From a virus: DNA of 64,000 nucleotides. This document shows, piece after piece, positions 23,365 to 56,810 of the stretch (position 1 is the stretch's first letter; the number at the start of each line of letters is the position of its first letter). The stretch lies in the IMG/VR virus record IMGVR_UViG_3300028920_000002, positions 62,001 to 126,000 of that record; one strand, written 5' to 3'. The translations under genes and the position numbers were made by a program. The notes beneath the pieces were generated by a model that had not been told where the DNA came from, did not search any database, and saw only the letters and a program-made list of their open reading frames with translations.

Positions 23365-23821
23365 GGCGTTCGACCAGGTCGGCCACCACCTGCAGGTGCT
23401 CGGCAAGACCGTCAACGCCAACGTCCAGGTGATGCAGCAGGGCTTCTTCGCCAACGACATCTGGATGGAGTGCCTGAAGCGAGCTCTCGACGACGTGGCG
23501 ATGGGCACGCCCCGTCTCAGAACCAGGCAGGAGGATGCCGGCGACCGGGCCATCGAAGAAGCCGAGGGTCTGGATTGGGAGAGCTACTGGAAGGATGCGC
23601 ACGACTTCGTCATGGAGAAGGCGAAGGAGCAGGAGCGCGCCCGGCTAGCTCGGCAGGAGGCGGAAGACGCAGCTGCCAAGGAACAGGATGAGGAGGTCAA
23701 CGAGGCCGAGGAGGCTGCAGACCTCATCGAATTTGGAGGCGACTATGCACGTCCAGAAGAGCAAGAAGAGGGAACCGGCGAAGCTGGTGAAGGACTCGAA
23801 CGTGGCGGTGGTGAAGACTAA
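23234..23821 (+). CDS. Highly charged helical protein, 195 aa
   Basis: ATG 23234 or 23240. Basic N-terminus (RRKKRVERQ), central helical region (60-115), then a long Glu/Ala coiled-coil-like stretch (130-175) and a Gly/Glu tail. Overlaps its upstream neighbour by 131 nt and its downstream neighbour by 77 nt. Possibly a nucleic-acid-associated or scaffold protein; not identified. Confidence 0.6.
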   Translation: MSMKGSEARRKKRVERQASKRVQKKVVKAAGPGSVPADVRQVRRAFDQVGHHLQVLGKTVNANVQVMQQGFFANDIWMECLKRALDDVAMGTPRLRTRQEDAGDRAIEEAEGLDWESYWKDAHDFVMEKAKEQERARLARQEAEDAAAKEQDEEVNEAEEAADLIEFGGDYARPEEQEEGTGEAGEGLERGGGED

Positions 23822-23954
23822 CACCGTCGGCGGCATGCGTCAGATGCGCTGCCCCAAATGCCACAACATGGCCGTTCCGCAGAGGACGTCCGGCGGGCAG
23901 CCGGTGATGCGCTGCGGCAGCTGCGGCATGATGTTCAAGTGCACGGCTATGTGA
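23745..23954 (+). CDS. Zinc-ribbon protein, 69 aa
   Basis: ATG 23745, RBS TTGGAGG. Basic N-terminus followed by CPKC and CGSC 19 residues apart, a clear zinc ribbon. Last gene of the long plus-strand array; overlaps the convergent acetyltransferase by 8 bp. Confidence 0.7.
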   Translation: MHVQKSKKREPAKLVKDSNVAVVKTNTVGGMRQMRCPKCHNMAVPQRTSGGQPVMRCGSCGMMFKCTAM

Positions 23955-24345
23955 GCCGCTTCATCACCCAGGCGGTGGATGCCAGCTCCCCAGCGATGTA
24001 GAACCCGAAGTCGATGTAGAGTTTGATGGCAGCTCGATTCTCTCTACGAACAGTGAGCATGGCTTGCGGCCTGGCGCCCAGGGCCATGTTCAGCATCTGC
24101 CTTGCCAGCCCTCGCCTGCGGAACTCTGGCACCACACCCAGACGAAGTACGTCTACCAGGTTGCCATCCATCGCCGCTAGTAGGTAGCCGATGATTCCAC
24201 GCTGCTTGTCCACAGCCACTAGACCGAAGCCGTACTCGAGCTCGCGGGCAATGGTGGCGGAGTTGAAGCAGTTCTCTCTGAAGAGTTCTATCTCGAGCGC
24301 TTCTAGCTCTTCAGCGTCGTCTTCGGTGGCGTCCCGGATTTCCAT
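23947..24345 (-). CDS. GNAT-family N-acetyltransferase, 132 aa
   Basis: ATG 24345 (MEIRDATEDD). A longer frame to 24426 would overlap the divergent gene. The acetyl-CoA loop is VPEFRRRGLARQML, preceded by the LRLGVV strand and followed by NRAAIKLYIDFGF, the RimI-like order. It would acetylate a protein N-terminus or small molecule; the substrate is unknown. Phages use such enzymes to modify host RNA polymerase or counter toxins, but that is inference. Confidence 0.85.
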   Translation of the reverse strand: MEIRDATEDDAEELEALEIELFRENCFNSATIARELEYGFGLVAVDKQRGIIGYLLAAMDGNLVDVLRLGVVPEFRRRGLARQMLNMALGARPQAMLTVRRENRAAIKLYIDFGFYIAGELASTAWVMKRLT

Positions 24346-24388
24346 GAGGTCGTAGTAGCAGAGTGGTATCGGTTGGAGGGTAGATTCC

Positions 24389-24637
24389 GTGGAAAAGCTC
24401 TGGTTCATTATCCGATTCTTCCGCAACGATGAGGAGCTCCCTGACTACGAGCCTGCTGAGGACAAGCGGCGGGTAGAGTCCTGTGTAAACGAGGACATCG
24501 CTCAGTTCAACAGCTTCTTTCAAGGACTTGGTAATGACCCACTCAGCAAGTTCGAGGTCTCTGCTATCAAGACCTACCTCGCCTGGAAACTTGGCCTCGC
24601 TCGGGAGAAGAAAGATGAGCTACCGCCCAGTAGTTGA
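24389..24637 (+). CDS. Hypothetical protein, 82 aa
   Basis: GTG 24389 after TTGGAGGG. Charged and helical with two Phe/Trp clusters. Overlaps the next gene by 23 nt. No family recognised. Confidence 0.6.
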   Translation: MEKLWFIIRFFRNDEELPDYEPAEDKRRVESCVNEDIAQFNSFFQGLGNDPLSKFEVSAIKTYLAWKLGLAREKKDELPPSS

Positions 24638-24935
24638 GTATTCGTGTGGTCGCTGCGCTCGGAAGTGGTACTCGGACCCACCGAAGGAGGAGCAGAAGGG
24701 CCCCGTCGCTCCTACGGTTGCGGTGAGCTACAGCGAGCCGGGAGAGGAGCCCATCGACATCTCGTTCGATGTACTCTGCGAGGGGTGCAAGAACACGGTG
24801 AAGAACCTGGTTCAATCCATCTCCAAGGAAATCAAGGGCAAGAGTCCGGCGCGACGGAAAGGTGGGGCTAAGAAGAAGGAAGAGCCGCGCACTCCTCCCT
24901 CTTCTTCCAAGGCGCATCCGAACCGGATGCCCTGA
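24615..24935 (+). CDS. Zinc-finger basic protein, 106 aa
   Basis: ATG 24615. CGRC at 11-14 and CEGC near 55-58 form one zinc site; the C-terminal 35 residues are Lys/Arg/Pro-rich and likely bind nucleic acid. Ends 1 nt before the convergent gene. Confidence 0.65.
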   Translation: MSYRPVVEYSCGRCARKWYSDPPKEEQKGPVAPTVAVSYSEPGEEPIDISFDVLCEGCKNTVKNLVQSISKEIKGKSPARRKGGAKKKEEPRTPPSSSKAHPNRMP

Positions 24936-24936
24936 C

Positions 24937-25638
24937 TCACGCTTGAGCGCGGTCGTTGCGGTAGCGCCGCCGTCCAGCGGGCTTCTTGCGTCGGTAGGAG
25001 CTGTAGTGCCGCTTCGAGCTCGCCGGGCGGAAGACGCGCAGCCGACCGCCGGGCCACGCCACCACGAGCACCGGCACATCCGTATGCTCCGCTGGCTCAC
25101 GGTGCACTCGCAGACTTGAGCCTGGGTACATCTTCACTAGCCAGTGGCAGACGTTGCCCTCCACGCCGTGGTAACCGAAGTGGCCCGTGGACTCACTGAG
25201 GTCGGTGTTCCGCACCAACTCTACACCGGGGTTGTTGGAGAGGTCATGGTAATCACGCTCGATGCGTGGGCCCATGCGCGGGTGCTCCACCAGCTTCTCG
25301 GTGTAGGTGTTCGCTCTCAGGAACACCTTGCCACCGGGCGGGGCCGGGATGGCGATGTGCACCAGAGCGAGCGGGTCACTCTGCCGCGCTTCACGCTTCA
25401 TCGACACCAGGCGGAACGGACCTCGGTCAGCAATACGTGCATAGGGCAGATGTAAGTCCTTACCCTCGGCGTACTTCTCGAAGTCCTCTACCAGCTGACC
25501 ACCAGCCATCAGAAAGCGGTCGGCGATGTAGACACCTACGCCGGCGTCGCCATCACAGATGCGGAGGAATCTCGTATGCGGCTCCGGCTCATCCTCGCGG
25601 AGAGTCGGGTAGTCTTCCGTCACCAAGTAGCACTTCAT
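24937..25638 (-). CDS. Hypothetical protein with basic tail, 233 aa
   Basis: ATG 25638, RBS AGAGGAG, downstream of a GGGATAA promoter. A beta-rich body (about 1-205) with a HWLVKMYPG segment is followed by a 25-residue Arg/Lys/Tyr tail. No motif identifies it. The strong promoter and monocistronic layout suggest a needed product in quantity. Confidence 0.7.
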   Translation of the reverse strand: MKCYLVTEDYPTLREDEPEPHTRFLRICDGDAGVGVYIADRFLMAGGQLVEDFEKYAEGKDLHLPYARIADRGPFRLVSMKREARQSDPLALVHIAIPAPPGGKVFLRANTYTEKLVEHPRMGPRIERDYHDLSNNPGVELVRNTDLSESTGHFGYHGVEGNVCHWLVKMYPGSSLRVHREPAEHTDVPVLVVAWPGGRLRVFRPASSKRHYSSYRRKKPAGRRRYRNDRAQA

Positions 25639-25680
25639 GGTGTCTCCTCTCGTTCTGGGAACGTGGTTCCCACCAGGATT

Positions 25681-25688
25681 CTTATCCC
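25681..25688 (-). promoter_or_regulatory. GGGATAA-type promoter, minus strand
   Basis: Minus strand reads CCAAAA, 14 nt, GGGATAAGA, then CCTGGTGGGA. A short inverted repeat (GGGAACCACGTTCCC) lies between it and the start at 25638 and may be an operator or leader hairpin. Confidence 0.7.
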
Positions 25689-25708
25689 GTATTCGAGAGG
25701 AGTTTTGG

Positions 25709-25969
25709 TTATGCTGCCGCGGGACGAAGTGCTCCCTCAACTGCATTGACCGCGAAGGACAAAGCAGTCTGGACATCTTCAGTGCTCGCGTCGATGCCCT
25801 TCAGGACACCCAGAGCGACCTCAGCCCCTGCCGGGCTCGAGACCTCAAGCCCACGCAGTTGCTGGGCCTCCTTGGTGTGCCCTGAACGCGCGAGCACGTC
25901 ACGGCACAGCTCAACGCTGATGGTGGCGTTCTCGTAGTTCACTGGGTTCACCTGAGGGATGAGGTACAT
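25709..25969 (-). CDS. Hypothetical protein, 86 aa
   Basis: ATG 25969 without a clear RBS; a GTAAAT box lies 4 nt upstream, so it may be leaderless. Mostly helical (Ala/Glu/Val). No family recognised. The 170 bp upstream are AT-rich relative to the rest of the window. Confidence 0.55.
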   Translation of the reverse strand: MYLIPQVNPVNYENATISVELCRDVLARSGHTKEAQQLRGLEVSSPAGAEVALGVLKGIDASTEDVQTALSFAVNAVEGALRPAAA

Positions 25970-26096
25970 CTCTATTTACAATTTGGTTCTTCTTCCGTGT
26001 ACTTGCAAGAGAAAATCGTCATTGTACTTCAACGGTCAAGTGAACAATCGATGAAGTAATTGGGGCTAGAAGAAGAAAACTCTAGTGTTCACAAGA

Positions 26097-26128
26097 CCTT
26101 GCGCGGGGCGCCCCACGTTGGGACGCCC
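26097..26128. terminator. Terminator hairpin downstream of 26142 gene
   Basis: CGGGGCGcCCC / GGGaCGCCCCG stem (10 pairs with one mismatch) and a 5-nt loop, 15 nt past the stop of the minus-strand gene at 26142. Confidence 0.7.
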
Positions 26129-26141
26129 CGGCACAGTCCGG

Positions 26142-26555
26142 TCACGGCAGCGGGAACGGCAGCACCTTCTTGGCGATGAAGATGAGCGCCACGCCGGCGA
26201 TGGTCATCGCGCCAGCGTTGCACAGCACATCGACGGACCGATGGCCCGCGGCGCGCAGCGCGACTCTCGTCCTGCTCTCGGTCTCGGTGACCGGAGCGGG
26301 GGTGGGTGCAGGCGCGCTCTGAATCGGGGCGCCGTTGCCGGGCTGGGGATTGGTCTGGGTTGCGTCGCTCATGATTCTCTCCTCTGCAGAGTGTGGGCTC
26401 TTTGCCCTTCCACTCTTCTTATCCCGCTTCCTGCGCGGTTTTTGCTCTGGCTGGGGAAGCGCGTAGCCAGCATCTGACAGGGTGTACGTGAGCGGGCGCT
26501 TCTCGGGGTTCCGCTCGTACGTCTTCTTCGACTCTCGTTCTTGAATCTCCGGCAC
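26142..26555 (-). CDS. Pro-rich protein with C-terminal membrane span; nested in-frame short form
   Basis: GTG 26555 behind GGAG and a GGGATAA promoter gives 137 aa. Inside it, without a stop, are a second GGGATAA promoter (26419-26425) and ATG 26372 with RBS AGGAGAG, giving a 76-aa C-terminal product. The short form is a Pro/Ala/Thr-rich segment plus one membrane span near the C-terminus (AGAMTIAGVALIFIAKKVL). The long form adds a charged, Lys/Arg-rich domain. Two isoforms from one frame, or a fusion of two former genes, would explain this. A single-span holin-like or membrane-targeting role is only a guess. Confidence 0.6.
   Translation of the reverse strand: MPEIQERESKKTYERNPEKRPLTYTLSDAGYALPQPEQKPRRKRDKKSGRAKSPHSAEERIMSDATQTNPQPGNGAPIQSAPAPTPAPVTETESRTRVALRAAGHRSVDVLCNAGAMTIAGVALIFIAKKVLPFPLP
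26419..26425 (-). promoter_or_regulatory. GGGATAA-type promoter inside a coding frame, minus strand
   Basis: Minus strand: GCAAAAA, 13 nt, GGGATAAGA, then AGTGGA. It is read through in frame by the longer gene starting at 26555. Confidence 0.75.
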
Positions 26556-26582
26556 CGGGTCTCCTTTCCGCGTCCACTTTTG

Positions 26583-26589
26583 TTATCCC
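26583..26589 (-). promoter_or_regulatory. GGGATAA-type promoter, minus strand
   Basis: Minus strand: GCAAA, 15 nt, GGGATAACA, then AAGTGGA; RBS AAAGGAG and GTG 26555 follow. Confidence 0.75.
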
Positions 26590-26722
26590 TTCAACCGGAC
26601 GAAGTTTGCGGGAGGGGCGAGCCACAAGAGGGACCGGCAAGCCACACAGTGGCGAACGAGCACTCTGCTCCGCCGGCAGGACCAGCGGTGGAAAGGAGGT
26701 GTGACTCACCCCTCCAGAACTG

Positions 26723-26729
26723 TTATCCC
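26723..26729 (-). promoter_or_regulatory. GGGATAA-type promoter, minus strand
   Basis: Minus strand: GCAAA, 15 nt, GGGATAACA, then TCTGGAGGGGTGAG. The GTG just downstream opens a frame to 26419 of doubtful coding quality (see rejected list), so this promoter may drive an untranslated leader or a very small peptide. Confidence 0.7.
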
Positions 26730-26762
26730 CACTTCCCTGCTAGCTTTGCGGGGTGGGTCCCG

Positions 26763-26771
26763 TGGTAGAGT
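26763..26771 (+). promoter_or_regulatory. Extended -10 box, leaderless-type promoter
   Basis: TGGTAGAGT, 9 nt before ATG 26781, no Shine-Dalgarno. Would drive the tape-measure gene. Confidence 0.5.
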
Positions 26772-26780
26772 TGAGTGGTC

Positions 26781-29700
26781 ATGGTGATGACATCCACCGA
26801 GATTGCTGCGCTCAACGCGGGCTTCCAGCAGCAGACTATGGCCGGCATGCAGCACGCTGGGATGATTAGTCAGTACGCTGCGACGAGAGACCCATCTCAA
26901 GGGGCGGACCAACTGGCGGGCAACATAGTCAACCGAACTGCAGCCATCGGAGCTCCGATGGCTGGACTCGGTATGATGCTGGCCGGGGTAGACCCCATTA
27001 GCATGGGCATCAAAGGCGGCATGGGCGCTGCCGCCATGGGTGCTAGTGGATTCGGAATTGGTGCTGCTGCGCTGGGTGGTGCTGCCGCGGTAGGTGTTCC
27101 GATGATGGCCGCCCAATATGCCGGTGGTCAGATGATGACCGGTATGCAGCAGCAGCAGATGCTGCAAAGCACCATGCGTCAGTACTACCGAGAGCCGAAT
27201 ATGTACGGCCAACTCGGTCCTACTCGAGGTCAGGTGGGGGACATGGGCGCAAGCATGCGCATGATGTCTCAGCAGCGTGGCCCTGGTGGTGAATTCACCA
27301 GTATGGAAGAGCTAGGTCGCCTGGCTGCCAACATGGGTCGGATGGGACTCGACCAGGGCGTGCGCAACGCCAAGGACTTCAACGAGCAGTTCCAGAAGAT
27401 GCTCAAGGCGGTGAAGCAAGTAGCCACCGACCTTGGTACTTCGCTGGAGCAGGCGCAGCAGACCATGGCGTCCATGCGCGCTGCCGGCGTACTTGAGCGT
27501 GGTGGCCAAGTACGCATGGCCGCACAGATGCGGCAGGGGGCCTTGGCGGGAGGCATCGCTACCTCAGAGATTGCGGGCATGGCGATGGTCGGCTCGCAAA
27601 TCTCGAGGATGATTGGTGGGAGGGGAGCCGCTGGTGCAGAAGCGGGCGCCTCTTTGATGACCGACATCGGCGCCGCCCAGCGGGTAGGAGCGTTGAGCGA
27701 AGAGCAAATCTACAACGCTACCGGCCTCACCGGCGCCGAAGGGCGAAGGGCCCTGGCTACCGGGATGATGCAGAATACTGCTCGCTTCCTCAAAGGAGGA
27801 CTGGGCCGGCGCTTCTTGGCATCGGTAGCCGGAGAGAACGGTCAGGTCAACCAAGAGGACATTGATGAGTATCTGGCTGGCGGCGTTGGTACTGGACGCA
27901 CGATGCAGATGGCCGCCCGCAACCTCGGTCGTGTGGGCAGGGCGGGTTTCATCCGAAATGAAGGCAGGTATCGTGGAGAGGCCATGCGCGCCCTGCGTGG
28001 CCAGGGCTCAGCCCTGGTTCTTCGTAGCTGGATGAATCAGCGCGGCATGAACGTCGATGACATGGACGACCGCTCCATGATTTGGATGAAGCGGCGTACT
28101 GGCATGGACTACGAGCAGCTAGAGGCAGCGATGAGTCTGCTGCGCAACCAGACACGCATCTCCATGCGCCGAGAGATGTCTGCGGAGCAAGACCAGAACG
28201 TCCAACGGTTGAATCGTCAGCGCCAGCAGCGCGGTGTTCAGGGAGTCAAGAGGCAGGTAGAAGATTTTCGGGCCAAGGTACAGGGCACGCTTCAACAGAT
28301 GGGCGCTGACTTGTATGAGGGCGCGTCAGAGCTGACTGAGGCGTTCATCAACAAGTTGACCGACAACTACGTCACTTCGATGAACCGCGACGTGACGGAG
28401 ATAGCCAGGGAGCTGCGAGTTGGTGGGGCGGCAGCTCGCCAAGGAGCTCTTGGAGAATTGGGTGTTGGACCTCAAGGTGGCATCCTTGGCTTTAAGCGCG
28501 GGGCTACGCTTGGAGTGGGTACGACTGGTCAGATGGGCATGCGTCAGTTGTACGGTGAAGGACTCACGGGTGGTTACGCAGGGGTGCAAGCTCGCAACCA
28601 ACGGGTCTTCTCTGACGTTGACCGTGCTGGGTTTGCTGGGTCGGATATCGATACCGGCAGCATGGCGAGCGTTCGTAAGGGCTTGCTCGAGTACAACCAG
28701 GTCCAAGACTCCTTCTTCACTGAGCGACACCAGAGTGCACGAGACCTCGGCAAGAAGTACGAGCTGGAGTTCAAGGCGGCTATCGGGTCCCGGGAGATTC
28801 GTGGGCAGCGCATGAATCGTGTGCGCTCATTTCAGTGGTGGCTCTCGGAAAAAGCCAAGACGGACAAGGATGCTGCTGCGCTCTATTCGCAGATACAGGG
28901 TGGTGGAATTGAGGGTAAGAAGAGGGCGGCTGCTATCTATGGAGAGCTTGCTCGTGGTGCCAACGCAGGCGCTGAAGCGCAATTCATGGGCACTCCCACC
29001 CTTGAGGGCATCTATGGTGGAGGAGCATTCCTCACCACGGGACAACGTGAACGGGCGGTCGGTGGCGCGTTTCTTCAGGGACGCCAACTTCGGGAAACCG
29101 TAGTCGAGGCCGAGACCCGAGGGCGCGTAGAAGACGTAGCTGGCGCCTTGGGGGGCGCGGCCGGTACGGTGGCGGAGATTGCCGGTTTCGGCCTGGTCAG
29201 TGCTAGGGAGGGTAAGGAGTTTGGTCAGCGTGTTGCTGATTGGCTCACACCAACAGTGGCCAAGGTCGCCGGTGTTGAGGGGGCGGTCGGTATTACTGGT
29301 CGTGACCGTGCGGCTGTAGGCCGCTTCATGGAGGGTGAGCGCGGTCAGGAGATGATGCGCGCCATGCTGAGCGAGGACCACGCTGTTCGTCGAGCAGCTA
29401 TGGGCCAAGCTGCCACGCGTTTCATGGAGCTGGGTCAACGGATGGAGAAGGCCGGTCTAGGAGGGCTCACACAAGAGGAGCGTACTCAGTACCTGGCTAC
29501 TCAAGGAATGCTGGCGGGCTCGCAGTATGCTGAGATGTTGTCAGAGTATGGCGTGACTTCCCTGGACCAACTATCCGAAGCGGACCGTGAAATCGCTGAG
29601 GGTAGGTTGAAAGAGATTGCCACACGTTGGGGTATGGGAGACCCCAAAGCTGTGGTCAATGCACACGCCACAATGGGCGCAAGTCTCACCAGAGCACAGT

Positions 29701-30587
29701 ACGAGAAGCGTAAGGCGTATTTTGGTCAGGAAGGTAGGCGAGCTAGGGGCTTGATGACGGTGCTCAAGACTAGCGGAGTGGTGAACGAGTATGGCGTACC
29801 CCAAGGAGAGCTGTCCGAGAAGTTGAAGGGCGTCAAGGGTCAGCGCGGAGCTGAGCTGGCAGGCAGGTTCCTGAAGGGGATGTTTGGGGCTACAGCGGCT
29901 AGGGGTCAGATGACTGGACTCTCTCCGCAACAGGACCTACAAGCGCTGATGACTGCTGAGCAGGACACTGGTTCGGCGATGCAGGCTCTGCAGCAGATGA
30001 CGGTTGCTCAGCAGCGGCAGATGGCGGAGCAGCTGAAAGGCGTGCCTGGAGCACAGGATGTACGCAAGCAGGTACTTAGGCAGACTGCGGCTACTCAACG
30101 CATCGAGAAGGCCAGAGGAGGTCGTTGGGGGCAGGTGAAGGCCATGTTGGGTGTGGCCGGAGTATCTGCACAAGATTTGAAGGAGGCTGGACTTACCAAA
30201 GAGAAGTGGTCGAAGATGAACGCGGAGGAGGAAGTCCGCGCTCTGGCCGCTGCGGCGGGAATCGACCCGACAGATGAAAAGGCCATGGGCTCACTCCGCG
30301 AAGGAGTCATGTCACTCCGTCAGGGCGGACAGGCAGGGCGCGGTGCTGCAGCTACCGCTGGTCTCGACTTGGCGGCGATGGGGGCCTCGAAGGAGGCGCA
30401 AGAAAAGAGGGATGCGCAAAACCGAGCGGCACAGCAGAATGACCCCAGCTACCGTGCGTTGGTCGACATCAAGGGTGCCATCGAGAACCTGCCCGGCAAT
30501 ATTGCTGCAGCGATGCCAGTGCAGGGCGAAGGCGCCGAGCCGTCGAATCCCCCGGGTGCCCACGGTACTAGGACGACTGGGCCATGA
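26781..30587 (+). CDS. Probable tape measure protein, 1268 aa
   Basis: ATG 26781, or ATG 26787, 9-15 nt behind an extended -10 box. The N-terminal 120 residues are Met/Gly/Ala-rich with two or three hydrophobic stretches; the rest is long, helical and rich in Gln, Arg, Glu and Ala without Cys or Trp clusters. The C-terminus carries a short LVDIKGAIENLPGNI helix of the kind that ends many tape measure proteins. Length, composition and position before the baseplate-like genes support the call. At 0.15 nm per residue it would set a tail of about 190 nm. Confidence 0.7.
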   Translation: MVMTSTEIAALNAGFQQQTMAGMQHAGMISQYAATRDPSQGADQLAGNIVNRTAAIGAPMAGLGMMLAGVDPISMGIKGGMGAAAMGASGFGIGAAALGGAAAVGVPMMAAQYAGGQMMTGMQQQQMLQSTMRQYYREPNMYGQLGPTRGQVGDMGASMRMMSQQRGPGGEFTSMEELGRLAANMGRMGLDQGVRNAKDFNEQFQKMLKAVKQVATDLGTSLEQAQQTMASMRAAGVLERGGQVRMAAQMRQGALAGGIATSEIAGMAMVGSQISRMIGGRGAAGAEAGASLMTDIGAAQRVGALSEEQIYNATGLTGAEGRRALATGMMQNTARFLKGGLGRRFLASVAGENGQVNQEDIDEYLAGGVGTGRTMQMAARNLGRVGRAGFIRNEGRYRGEAMRALRGQGSALVLRSWMNQRGMNVDDMDDRSMIWMKRRTGMDYEQLEAAMSLLRNQTRISMRREMSAEQDQNVQRLNRQRQQRGVQGVKRQVEDFRAKVQGTLQQMGADLYEGASELTEAFINKLTDNYVTSMNRDVTEIARELRVGGAAARQGALGELGVGPQGGILGFKRGATLGVGTTGQMGMRQLYGEGLTGGYAGVQARNQRVFSDVDRAGFAGSDIDTGSMASVRKGLLEYNQVQDSFFTERHQSARDLGKKYELEFKAAIGSREIRGQRMNRVRSFQWWLSEKAKTDKDAAALYSQIQGGGIEGKKRAAAIYGELARGANAGAEAQFMGTPTLEGIYGGGAFLTTGQRERAVGGAFLQGRQLRETVVEAETRGRVEDVAGALGGAAGTVAEIAGFGLVSAREGKEFGQRVADWLTPTVAKVAGVEGAVGITGRDRAAVGRFMEGERGQEMMRAMLSEDHAVRRAAMGQAATRFMELGQRMEKAGLGGLTQEERTQYLATQGMLAGSQYAEMLSEYGVTSLDQLSEADREIAEGRLKEIATRWGMGDPKAVVNAHATMGASLTRAQYEKRKAYFGQEGRRARGLMTVLKTSGVVNEYGVPQGELSEKLKGVKGQRGAELAGRFLKGMFGATAARGQMTGLSPQQDLQALMTAEQDTGSAMQALQQMTVAQQRQMAEQLKGVPGAQDVRKQVLRQTAATQRIEKARGGRWGQVKAMLGVAGVSAQDLKEAGLTKEKWSKMNAEEEVRALAAAAGIDPTDEKAMGSLREGVMSLRQGGQAGRGAAATAGLDLAAMGASKEAQEKRDAQNRAAQQNDPSYRALVDIKGAIENLPGNIAAAMPVQGEGAEPSNPPGAHGTRTTGP

Positions 30588-39594: not shown

Positions 39595-39601
39595 GGGATA
39601 A
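39595..39601 (+). promoter_or_regulatory. GGGATAA-type promoter
   Basis: CCTAGCATTA, 13 nt, GGGATAACA, then CTCTGGAGG (also RBS) and ATG 39618. The upstream box is weaker than in other copies. Confidence 0.65.
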
Positions 39602-40698: not shown

Positions 40699-41130
40699 AT
40701 GGACCAGTACGACCGGGCATTCTACGACGACCTGCAGAAGGAAGCGGCCTCGACGGTGGAAGACAACGAGGACTCCATGACCGGTGGAGAGAATCCGGTC
40801 GAGCCCAAGGCTGGGGACCCGCCTTCCGACGAAGGCACCATCGATGCCTCATGGGGTGAGAACGACACTCCCGGCAAGAAGAACGACCCAGTTCACCTCA
40901 GCGATGCGGTGGCGAGCTCGATTCAGGAGAGCCGACAGAAGCTCCTGGACCGATGCTTCGCTCAGAAGCCAGCGGCCCAGCGGGCTGCGCAGAGCTTCGT
41001 GAGCCAGCATCTCTCGCACGCCGCCAGCGGAGACTTCGAGAGCCGTGCCCCTCTACTCGAGGGAAAAGCCAAACAGGCATCAGCCTGCGAAACGCTGAGG
41101 GACCAGGTCTCTCGCGTCTTCGAGGACTGA
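40699..41130 (+). CDS. Acidic protein with LQKEA motif, 143 aa
   Basis: ATG 40699, leaderless-type start. N-terminus YDRAFYDDLQKEAAS shares the (L/M)xKxA element with other probable virion proteins. Central acidic, disordered part and helical C-terminus with two Cys. Stop overlaps a potential ATG at 41130. Confidence 0.6.
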   Translation: MDQYDRAFYDDLQKEAASTVEDNEDSMTGGENPVEPKAGDPPSDEGTIDASWGENDTPGKKNDPVHLSDAVASSIQESRQKLLDRCFAQKPAAQRAAQSFVSQHLSHAASGDFESRAPLLEGKAKQASACETLRDQVSRVFED

Positions 41131-41154
41131 TGCTGAAAACTGCTGCGCTGCTCG

Positions 41155-41161
41155 GGGATAA
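41155..41161 (+). promoter_or_regulatory. GGGATAA-type promoter upstream of the sigma-like gene
   Basis: GCTGAAAA, 15 nt, GGGATAAGA, then CAGTGGAGAG and ATG 41178. If the sigma-like product reads this class, the gene is autoregulated. Confidence 0.75.
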
Positions 41162-41177
41162 GAGCAGTGGAGAGCAA

Positions 41178-41963
41178 ATGGCGCGCAAGAATCCACTGGA
41201 CAGTGCGCTCTCCGCAAAGGAGAAGCTCGCGGCTCAGCGCCGCGCAGAAGATATCCAAGCGTGGGAAACGTGGAAGAAGCAGCCCACGCCCGAGAACACT
41301 CACGTCCTGCTGAACCGTTTCGAGCCAGTCTTTCGCCAGAAGGTGAGGGACTGGAAGGCCCCCAACACGAGAACTGGCGCCTTCAAAGCTAACCTCAAGC
41401 TTCACGCGGGCAACGCGTTCGAGAGCTACGACCCCAACCGAGGGGCTAGCCTGCGTACCCACGTGGAGAACCATCTGAAGAAGTCGATGCGCTTCAACCA
41501 GAGGTACCAGAATGCTCGCTACATGCCTGAAGGGCAGACCGAGCTCATCGGACCTATCCAAAAAGCGCACGGCACTTTGATGGACCAGCTGGGACGGGAC
41601 CCGACGCACCGAGAGATTGCTAGCTACATCAACCAAACCCCGGAGCTCATAGGCCGACGTAAGCCGTTGAGCGCCGCGAAGGTGAAGCGCATCTCCACAG
41701 CTGCGTTGGAAAAGGACATCATCGGGTCCACCTTCGAGAGCGACCCGACGCCTCGAGCGTCAAAGAGGGAGTTCGAGGTCATTGGGCAGCTACGCCCGAC
41801 GCTGACGCGTGATGAACAGGAAGTCTTCGACTACCTGTACGGCCAAAACGGCAAACCGCGTATCGGCTCCACCAGCCAGCTGGCTGGCAAACTAGGTAAG
41901 AGTCAGTCACAAGTCTCACGTTTGAAGAGTGGGATTCTGGCCAAGTACAAGCACTACTACTAG
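41178..41963 (+). CDS. Sigma-70-like RNA polymerase sigma factor, 261 aa
   Basis: ATG 41178 with RBS TGGAG behind a GGGATAA promoter; an in-frame ATG 41130 would read through the promoter. Residues 81-103 (FESYDPNRGASLRTHVENHLKKSM) match region 2 of group 3/FliA-type sigma factors. Residues 116-150 contain a region 3-like stretch with LGRDPTHREIASYI. Residues 209-256 (LTRDEQEVFDYLYG ... SQLAGKLGKSQSQVSRLKSGIL) form the region 4 helix-turn-helix. The protein should redirect host RNA polymerase. The GGGATAA element is a natural candidate for its target. Confidence 0.78.
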   Translation: MARKNPLDSALSAKEKLAAQRRAEDIQAWETWKKQPTPENTHVLLNRFEPVFRQKVRDWKAPNTRTGAFKANLKLHAGNAFESYDPNRGASLRTHVENHLKKSMRFNQRYQNARYMPEGQTELIGPIQKAHGTLMDQLGRDPTHREIASYINQTPELIGRRKPLSAAKVKRISTAALEKDIIGSTFESDPTPRASKREFEVIGQLRPTLTRDEQEVFDYLYGQNGKPRIGSTSQLAGKLGKSQSQVSRLKSGILAKYKHYY

Positions 41964-43184: not shown

Positions 43185-43191
43185 GGAATAA
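43185..43191 (+). promoter_or_regulatory. GGGATAA-type promoter (GGAATAA)
   Basis: GCCAA, 15 nt, GGAATAAGA, then TCTCGGAGG. ACTAGC separates it from the terminator at 43148. Confidence 0.65.
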
Positions 43192-47953: not shown

Positions 47954-47960
47954 TTATTCC
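47954..47960 (-). promoter_or_regulatory. GGGATAA-type promoter (GGAATAA), minus strand
   Basis: Minus strand: GCAGAAA, 13 nt, GGAATAACA, then AGAGTGGTGGA. Shares its spacer with the divergent promoter at 47981. Confidence 0.65.
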
Positions 47961-47980: not shown

Positions 47981-47987
47981 GGCATAA
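47981..47987 (+). promoter_or_regulatory. GGGATAA-type promoter (GGCATAA)
   Basis: CCGCAA, 16 nt, GGCATAAGA, then GCGACGGAGG and ATG 48006. Divergent partner of the promoter at 47954. Confidence 0.65.
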
Positions 47988-52037: not shown

Positions 52038-52044
52038 TTATCCC
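52038..52044 (-). promoter_or_regulatory. GGGATAA-type promoter, minus strand
   Basis: Minus strand: TAGCTGCAAAAA, 13 nt, GGGATAACG, then ACTGTGGA. Confidence 0.8.
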
Positions 52045-53051: not shown

Positions 53052-53126
53052 GCGGGTGTACCTCAGCTGGCAGAGGGCCGGGCGTAAAGAACCCGGACGT
53101 CGGTGGTTCGAGCCCATCCACCCGCG
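53052..53126 (+). tRNA. tRNA with 9-nt anticodon loop (TAAAGAA)
   Basis: Perfect 7-bp acceptor (53052-58 with 53119-25), 4-bp D stem CCTC/GAGG with GG in the loop, 5-bp anticodon stem CCGGG/CCCGG, and T stem with loop TTCGAGC. The anticodon loop is CGTAAAGAA, nine nucleotides rather than seven. If a C-A pair closes it, a seven-nt loop GTAAAGA would present AAA after U33. No CCA is encoded. Amino acid identity is not assignable. Confidence 0.8.
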
Positions 53127-53130
53127 CTAG

Positions 53131-53204
53131 GGGCGGTTAGCTCAATGGCAGAGCAGCAGGACTAAAGAATCTGCAGGCTGCGAGTTCAAGTCTCGCACCG
53201 CCCC
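53131..53204 (+). tRNA. tRNA with 9-nt anticodon loop (TAAAGAA)
   Basis: Acceptor GGGCGGT/ACCGCCC, D stem GCTC/GAGC, T stem GCGAG/CTCGC with loop TTCAAGT. Anticodon stem GCAGG/TCTGC encloses ACTAAAGAA, again nine nt. G53130 could pair with C53204 as an eighth acceptor pair. The body differs from the first tRNA but the loop ends in the same TAAAGAA. No CCA encoded. Confidence 0.8.
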
Positions 53205-53212
53205 CTAGGAGT

Positions 53213-56803: not shown

Positions 56804-56810
56804 GGGATAA
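56804..56810 (+). promoter_or_regulatory. GGGATAA-type promoter
   Basis: CTGAAA, 15 nt, GGGATAACG, then ACTGTGGAGACATG. Divergent partner of the promoter at 56777; the -10 boxes are 20 nt apart. Confidence 0.8.

What the first reader, a model, noticed from the sequence alone, without database searches (positions are those of the whole stretch)
41155..41963. A phage sigma factor preceded by its own promoter class
The protein at 41178 has sigma region 2, 3 and 4 patterns, and its gene begins directly behind a GGGATAA element. Together with the previous finding this suggests a phage-encoded sigma that recognises the element and autoregulates.
Basis: inference. Interest (0 to 1): 0.8.

Follow-up and report, generated by a model that had tools for sequence, protein, structure and literature searches.

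The report
Phage sigma factor with early promoters
A roughly 190-kb phage carries a bacterial-type sigma factor, its own single-chain RNA polymerase and about 27 copies of a matching promoter; in a cultured relative the equivalent sigma and polymerase are found inside the virus particle, so these phages probably inject a ready-made transcription machine that reads their own early promoters.

Summary
41178-41963 encodes a divergent sigma-70-family protein, 16 nt behind GGGATAA. GGGATAA is the core of a real promoter class: GCAAA-N15-GG(G/A/T)ATAA-N6-TGGA. There are about 27 sites in the 186.7-kb phage genome, 24 of them intergenic; one precedes a tmRNA gene. The same geometry recurs in the other five sigma-bearing phage genomes scanned. 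A blind search of 2.9 million viral contigs with the promoter alone returned six contigs; four encode the phage RNA polymerase and three the sigma.

This phage encodes a 2151-aa beta-beta' fusion RNA polymerase. In the cultured relative, Salmonella phage Arash, published virion proteomics found both polymerase subunits and the P0001-like sigma (Gp10, 100% coverage) in particles. Arash's version of the promoter lies almost only on the strand carrying non-virion genes; virion genes have a different motif.

Best explanation: P0001 is the promoter-specificity subunit of a phage-encoded, virion-carried RNA polymerase that starts early transcription, not an adaptor for host core polymerase. The sigma gene has its own promoter in four of six close relatives. 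Binding to the phage polymerase, and packaging in this phage, are inferred. Bacterial-type sigmas are reported absent from RNA-polymerase-encoding jumbo phages.

The parts
41178..41963 (+). P0001, 261-aa sigma factor; ATG with GGAG 5 nt upstream. An in-frame upstream ATG at 41130 exists but the close homologue in G001 supports the start at 41178.
41155..41161 (+). -10 core GGGATAA of the sigma gene's own promoter (about -14 to -8)
   Evidence: PWM score 39.3; G001 has GGTATAA, G011 and G021 have GGGATAA at the same place
41135..41139 (+). -35-like element GAAAA of the same promoter, 15 nt before the core
   Evidence: A at -18/-17 in 19/23 unselected GGGATAA sites
41168..41172 (+). TGGAG: predicted transcription start (G 41169) and Shine-Dalgarno GGAG
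   Evidence: T at +7 after the core in 16/23 sites
39595..39601 (+). promoter core before the 39618-40277 gene; position conserved in G001 (160970 -)
43185..43191 (+). promoter core GGAATAA before a 74-aa ORF upstream of the RNase HII-like gene; position conserved in G001 (157418 -)
25682..25688 (-). promoter core GGGATAA
26419..26425 (-). promoter core GGGATAA
26583..26589 (-). promoter core GGGATAA
26723..26729 (-). promoter core GGGATAA, divergent from the 26781-30587 gene
47954..47960 (-). promoter core GGAATAA, divergent pair with 47981
47981..47987 (+). promoter core GGCATAA, divergent pair
52038..52044 (-). promoter core GGGATAA
52573..52579 (-). promoter core GGGATAA
53785..53791 (-). 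promoter core GGTATAA
54596..54602 (-). promoter core GGGATAA
55218..55224 (-). promoter core GGGATAA
55761..55767 (-). promoter core GGGATAA
56777..56783 (-). promoter core GGGATAA, divergent pair with 56804
56804..56810 (+). promoter core GGGATAA, divergent pair

Best explanation
P0001 is a genuine sigma-70-family factor that works as the promoter-specificity subunit of the phage's own bacterial-type RNA polymerase, a single 2151-aa beta-beta' chain encoded outside the window at record position 23816-30271. The holoenzyme reads a dedicated promoter class: a -35-like CAAA contacted by region 4, about 16 bp of spacer, an extended -10 GG(G/A/T)ATAA contacted by region 2, and a start at the conserved TGG. 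It is probably made late, packed into the virion with the polymerase and injected, so that it switches on the early and takeover genes without needing host sigma. In this phage and three close relatives the sigma gene also carries its own copy of the promoter, giving positive feedback once infection begins. Shown here: the protein family, the promoter class and its co-conservation with the sigma, and the polymerase gene. Shown by others for Arash: sigma and polymerase in virions. Inferred: sigma-polymerase binding, packaging in this phage, early timing. My separate estimates: sigma factor 0.95; reads this class 0.85; uses the phage polymerase 0.7; virion-carried in this phage 0.6.
For: Promoter class: a PWM built from GGGATAA sites finds 27 sites against 0-2 for column-permuted controls; 24/27 are intergenic where only 8.9% of the genome is (P=1e-22). 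The matrix, unretrained, finds 24 sites in G001 against 0-2. Unselected core matches in five genomes share A near -18 and T at +7. A site lies 38 nt before a tmRNA gene, so it acts on transcription. Link to the sigma: the class is found in all six sigma-bearing genomes scanned. A blind pattern search of 2.9 million viral contigs gave 6 contigs; 4 encode the Rpb2_6 domain in an open frame of about 2,160-2,200 aa and 3 the sigma. Polymerase: Rpb2_3, Rpb2_6, Rpb1_1, Rpb1_2 and Rpb1_5 in one chain, NADFDGD intact, and the beta' clamp-helix stretch, the sigma-2 docking site in bacteria, aligns. Rpb2_6 is in 16 of 18 sigma-bearing genomes tested; the two misses are 107- and 117-kb contigs. Virion: Arash Gp10 (P0001 relative, 26% identity) was detected in particles at 100% coverage with 24 unique peptides, Gp206 beta was the most detected protein and Gp216 beta' the fifth; the second Arash sigma, Gp196, is not listed (PMC10585845). 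Timing: GGTATAA in Arash is 1 on +, 40 on -, next to metabolism, replication and tRNA genes; + strand virion genes instead carry (C/T)TAAA(A/C)TA, 19 on + against 3 on -.
Against: No biochemical or expression data exist for any member. P0001 alone fails the Pfam region 2 profile and scores below cut-off for regions 3 and 4. AlphaFold pTM is only 0.41 and the Foldseek TM-scores are about 0.2-0.35, so the fold support rests on local domains. The Arash virion list holds 116 proteins, including replication enzymes with few peptides, and its authors name carry-over as an alternative. Many Arash minus-strand genes near the motif could be middle rather than early. If the class is purely early, a copy in front of the virion-sigma gene itself is unexpected. 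G017 has the promoter and the polymerase but no sigma was found.
Confidence: 0.62

Rival explanations
1. P0001 redirects the host core RNA polymerase to the GGGATAA class (as T4 gp55 and most phage sigmas do), while the phage polymerase reads something else.
For: Reviews state that sigma-encoding jumbo phages usually lack their own RNA polymerase and use the host's (PMC7598289, PMC13282480). P0001 has regions 3 and 4 and the promoter has a canonical -35/-10 geometry that a bacterial core could accept.
Against: The sigma co-occurs with a phage polymerase in 16/18 genomes tested; both are in Arash virions; the promoter pattern alone retrieves polymerase-bearing contigs.
Confidence: 0.22
2. A host alternative sigma of the FliA/WhiG kind (-10 GCCGATAA) reads the GGGATAA class, and P0001 does another job.
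For: GGGATAA shares GATAA with the sigma-28-type -10 (my knowledge of the consensus); the host of this phage is unknown.
Against: The same geometry recurs in phages of Salmonella and Vibrio with a different core (GGTATAA, G(T/C)TATAA) that is not the FliA consensus; a pattern search over all viral contigs returned mostly polymerase/sigma-bearing phages.
Confidence: 0.06
3. The phage polymerase recognises the class without P0001 (or through another factor), and P0001 serves a different promoter set.
For: AR9 and phiKZ polymerases use non-sigma specificity proteins (PMC7598289). G017 shows promoter and polymerase but no detected sigma.
Against: The element has a -35 and an extended -10 at bacterial holoenzyme spacing, which fits sigma regions 4 and 2; G017 may be incomplete; the clamp helices are retained.
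Confidence: 0.09
4. GGGATAA...TGGA is an RNA-level signal (ribosome binding or processing), not a promoter.
For: TGGAG often serves as the Shine-Dalgarno sequence, as at 41169-41172.
Against: A fixed-distance CAAA lies upstream of the core; sites precede a tmRNA and an Arash tRNA, which need no ribosome-binding site; divergent intergenic pairs occur.
Confidence: 0.01

Closest known systems
Salmonella phage Arash Gp10 with RNA polymerase Gp206/Gp216 (PMC10585845) and Vibrio phages D69/D148/D181
   Same: Homologous sigma (Arash: 26% identity over 90% of P0001), homologous polymerase, terminase, portal and capsid; same promoter geometry
   Different: Arash polymerase is split in two chains; core is GGTATAA; extra sigma Gp196 and a TAAAATA class; the sigma gene lacks its own promoter copy. 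No promoters were described in the Arash paper.
phiKZ / AR9 multisubunit virion and non-virion RNA polymerases
   Same: Phage-encoded bacterial-like beta/beta' without alpha; virion polymerase reads early promoters
   Different: phiKZ/AR9 cores are split into several polypeptides and no sigma homologue is reported; here one fused chain plus a bona fide sigma and a -35/-10 promoter
T4 gp55, SPO1 gp28 and cyanophage sigma factors
   Same: Phage-encoded sigma-family specificity factor for a dedicated promoter class; cyanophage sigmas are weakly similar to Arash Gp10
   Different: Those act on host core RNA polymerase for middle or late genes and are not known as virion partners of a phage polymerase (from my own knowledge)
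N4 and crAss-like virion RNA polymerases
   Same: Polymerase carried in the virion to start early transcription; the crAss enzyme is also a beta-beta' fusion (PMC7481178)
   Different: Unrelated or much more divergent enzymes; no sigma factor (from my own knowledge)

Membership tests
Sigma-70 family | Region 2 (core binding, -10 recognition) | tested here: met
   Pfam region 2 fails on P0001 alone and matches 6/12 members weakly; the family profile aligns 2.2-2.4 to SigA at 1.9e-13. Met at family level only.
Sigma-70 family | Region 3 | tested here: met
   12/12 members, best 5.6e-10; P0001 itself 6e-4, below the Pfam cut-off
Sigma-70 family | Region 4 helix-turn-helix | tested here: met
   P0001 5.5e-3, below cut-off; family profile covers it; C-terminal helices 232-239 and 243-260 in the model
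Sigma-70 family | Binds RNA polymerase core and directs promoter-specific initiation | not testable with these tools
   Needs biochemistry; the docking stretch on phage beta' is conserved
Arash-like RNA-polymerase-encoding phage lineage | Shared terminase, portal, capsid, polymerase and sigma | tested here: met
   phmmer hits for all five between this genome and Arash/D69
Arash-like RNA-polymerase-encoding phage lineage | Sigma and polymerase present in the virion | not testable with these tools
   Known only for Arash (PMC10585845); inferred here
phiKZ/AR9-type jumbo phage RNA polymerase systems | beta and beta' split into several polypeptides, no sigma homologue | tested here: not met
   One 2151-aa fused chain and a sigma gene in the same genome
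T4 gp55-type late sigma acting on host core | Phage without its own RNA polymerase; late promoter TATAAATA | tested here: not met
   Own polymerase present; TATAAATA-like strings absent in G000

The most novel reading that the evidence does not exclude
A lineage of about 165-195-kb phages packages a complete bacterial-style RNA polymerase holoenzyme, catalytic core plus a true sigma factor, and injects it to transcribe early genes from a dedicated -35/-10 promoter class that diverges along with the sigma.
Probability: 0.55. Interest if true: 0.85.

Novelty: new variant of a known kind. Interest (0 to 1): 0.76.

Why it matters
Published reviews describe RNA-polymerase-encoding jumbo phages as lacking sigma homologues and sigma-encoding ones as depending on host polymerase. 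This lineage appears to have both, with the sigma in the particle. It would be a minimal natural sigma-polymerase pair without alpha subunits, in this phage with a single-chain core, and it offers a series of diverged promoter-sigma pairs suited to testing how sigma specificity evolves. It also predicts promoters for cultured phages such as Arash, for which none were described.

Tried and rejected
Single-protein viral-contig scans with P0001 gave no relatives, and with the G001 sigma only its own contig; alignments were needed. Megablast of 24 kb against phage records gave no match. One genome-contig scan found no bacterial or prophage relative, so the host stays unknown. PHROGs on ten neighbouring window genes were mostly empty. 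The Arash and D69 matrices do not find the class in G011 above control, while the G000 and G001 matrices do, so the core sequence diverges between subgroups. The idea that the element might be a host sigma-28 site was set aside because the core changes within the lineage at constant geometry. An own promoter before the sigma gene is not universal: no site in G016 or G019.

Full report
What is there. The window is 62001-126000 of a 186,723-nt virus record. The ORF at 41178-41963 encodes 261 aa (P0001). GGGATAA at 41155-41161 lies 16 nt before its ATG. GGGATAA occurs 15 times in the window against 2.45 expected and 23 times in the record against 1 for the reversed pattern.

The protein. Pfam alone is weak: region 3 at 6e-4 and region 4 at 5.5e-3, below the gathering scores, and nothing for region 2. 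PHROG 351, RNA polymerase sigma factor, matches at 7e-10. With 12 relatives the profile reaches SigA structures at 1.9e-13, aligned from region 2.2 through region 4. All 12 members match region 3 and six match region 2. The AlphaFold2 model is all-helical (pLDDT 76.5, pTM 0.41), and the Foldseek hits listed are nearly all sigma chains, with low global TM because the domains float.

The element. Aligning the sites shows a bipartite promoter: GCAAA, 15 nt, GG(G/A/T)ATAA, 6 nt, TGGA. A matrix from these finds 27 sites in the genome; column-permuted controls give 0-2. 24 of 27 are intergenic where 8.9% of the genome is. Without selecting on the flanks, 19 of 23 GGGATAA sites have A at -18 and -17 and 16 of 23 have T at +7; A at -18 and T at +7 also stand out in G001, Arash, G012 and D69. 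If the core is placed at -14 to -8, the CAAA lies near -33 to -29, a normal sigma-70-family spacer of about 16 bp, and transcription would start at the G of TGG (inference). A site lies 38 nt before a tmRNA gene (record 143071 and 143109), and in Arash one lies 20 nt before a tRNA-Asn, which argues against a translational role.

Conservation with the sigma. The closest relative, G001 (50% identity), has 24 sites by the untouched G000 matrix against 0-2 in controls, one of them directly before its sigma gene. Arash has 36 and D69 30 sites by refined matrices, and G011 and G012 also carry the class. The third base of the core drifts (GGG/GGT/GTT/GCT) while the geometry stays. In reverse, an exact-pattern search of all IMG/VR contigs with the promoter alone returned six contigs: four have the Rpb2_6 polymerase domain in an open frame of about 2,160-2,200 aa and three have the sigma. 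The two without either are 45% and 41% GC at the matched stretch and are probably chance hits. The sigma gene has its own promoter copy in G000, G001, G011 and G021, but not in G016, G019 or Arash.

The polymerase. A 2151-aa protein at record 23816-30271 carries Rpb2_3, Rpb2_6, Rpb1_1, Rpb1_2 and Rpb1_5, the catalytic NADFDGD and a stretch aligning to the beta' clamp helices where bacterial sigma region 2 docks (the docking role is established knowledge, not tested). No alpha-subunit domain was found in six genomes. Rpb2_6 is present in 16 of 18 sigma-bearing genomes tested; the two without it are 107-kb and 117-kb contigs.

The virion link. In Arash, tandem mass spectrometry of particles found Gp206 (beta) as the most detected protein, Gp216 (beta') fifth, and Gp10 with 100% coverage and 24 unique peptides (PMC10585845). 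Per 100 residues that is about 10 unique peptides for Gp10, 8 for Gp206, 7 for Gp216 and 10 for the major capsid protein (my arithmetic). Gp10 is the only Arash protein that P0001 finds, and the order of neighbours is similar though weakly so. The second Arash sigma, Gp196, is not in the particle list and has no match in G000, G001 or G011.

Timing. In Arash GGTATAA is 40 to 1 on the minus strand, next to nucleotide-metabolism, replication and tRNA genes; plus-strand virion genes carry (C/T)TAAA(A/C)TA instead, 19 to 3 on plus. G012 repeats this, 51 to 4 and 22 to 5. G000 and G001 lack that late-type motif. In G000 ten plus-strand genes, including the polymerase gene, have TA(G/C)AN(T/C) 6-10 nt before the start codon, a second, possibly leaderless class.

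Mechanism. The simplest reading is a virion-carried sigma-polymerase holoenzyme that opens infection from the GG(N)ATAA promoters. Family, promoters, co-conservation and polymerase are shown here; packaging is shown by others for Arash only; binding, packaging in this phage and early timing are inferred. The copy before the sigma gene would add positive feedback in part of the lineage.

Known and new. Reviews state that RNA-polymerase-encoding jumbo phages lack sigma homologues and that sigma-encoding ones use host polymerase (PMC7824862, PMC7598289, PMC13282480). The paper on RNA-polymerase-encoding Caudovirales contains no mention of sigma or promoter in its main text (PMC7481178). The Arash paper lists the sigma but no promoters. 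The literature search covered open-licence PMC papers only, so a description elsewhere cannot be excluded. I file it as a new variant of a known kind.

Noticed in passing
G000 record 143109-143475 (L018:17609-17975): Phage-encoded tmRNA (tag ANDNATPALAVDKAA), preceded 38 nt upstream by a GGTATAA-class promoter.
   Followed up: partly
G000 record 129247-129684 (L018:3747-4184): 145-aa protein with only a sigma region 4-like HTH (Pfam 1.7e-9) and a cysteine-rich N-terminal part; its start lies 6 nt behind TACACT.
   Followed up: partly
window 26781, 36274, 40699, 41984 and other plus-strand starts: Second promoter-like class: TA(G/C)AN(T/C) 6-10 nt before the start codon of ten plus-strand genes, suggesting leaderless mRNAs read by another sigma, possibly the host's.
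   Followed up: partly
Arash (OQ632216.1), G012 and D69, plus strand: Late-type motif (C/T)TAAA(A/C)TA before virion genes; together with Gp196-like sigma, both absent from G000 and G001.
   Followed up: partly
window 53052-53205: Two adjacent tRNA-Phe genes with the same AAA anticodon.
   Followed up: no
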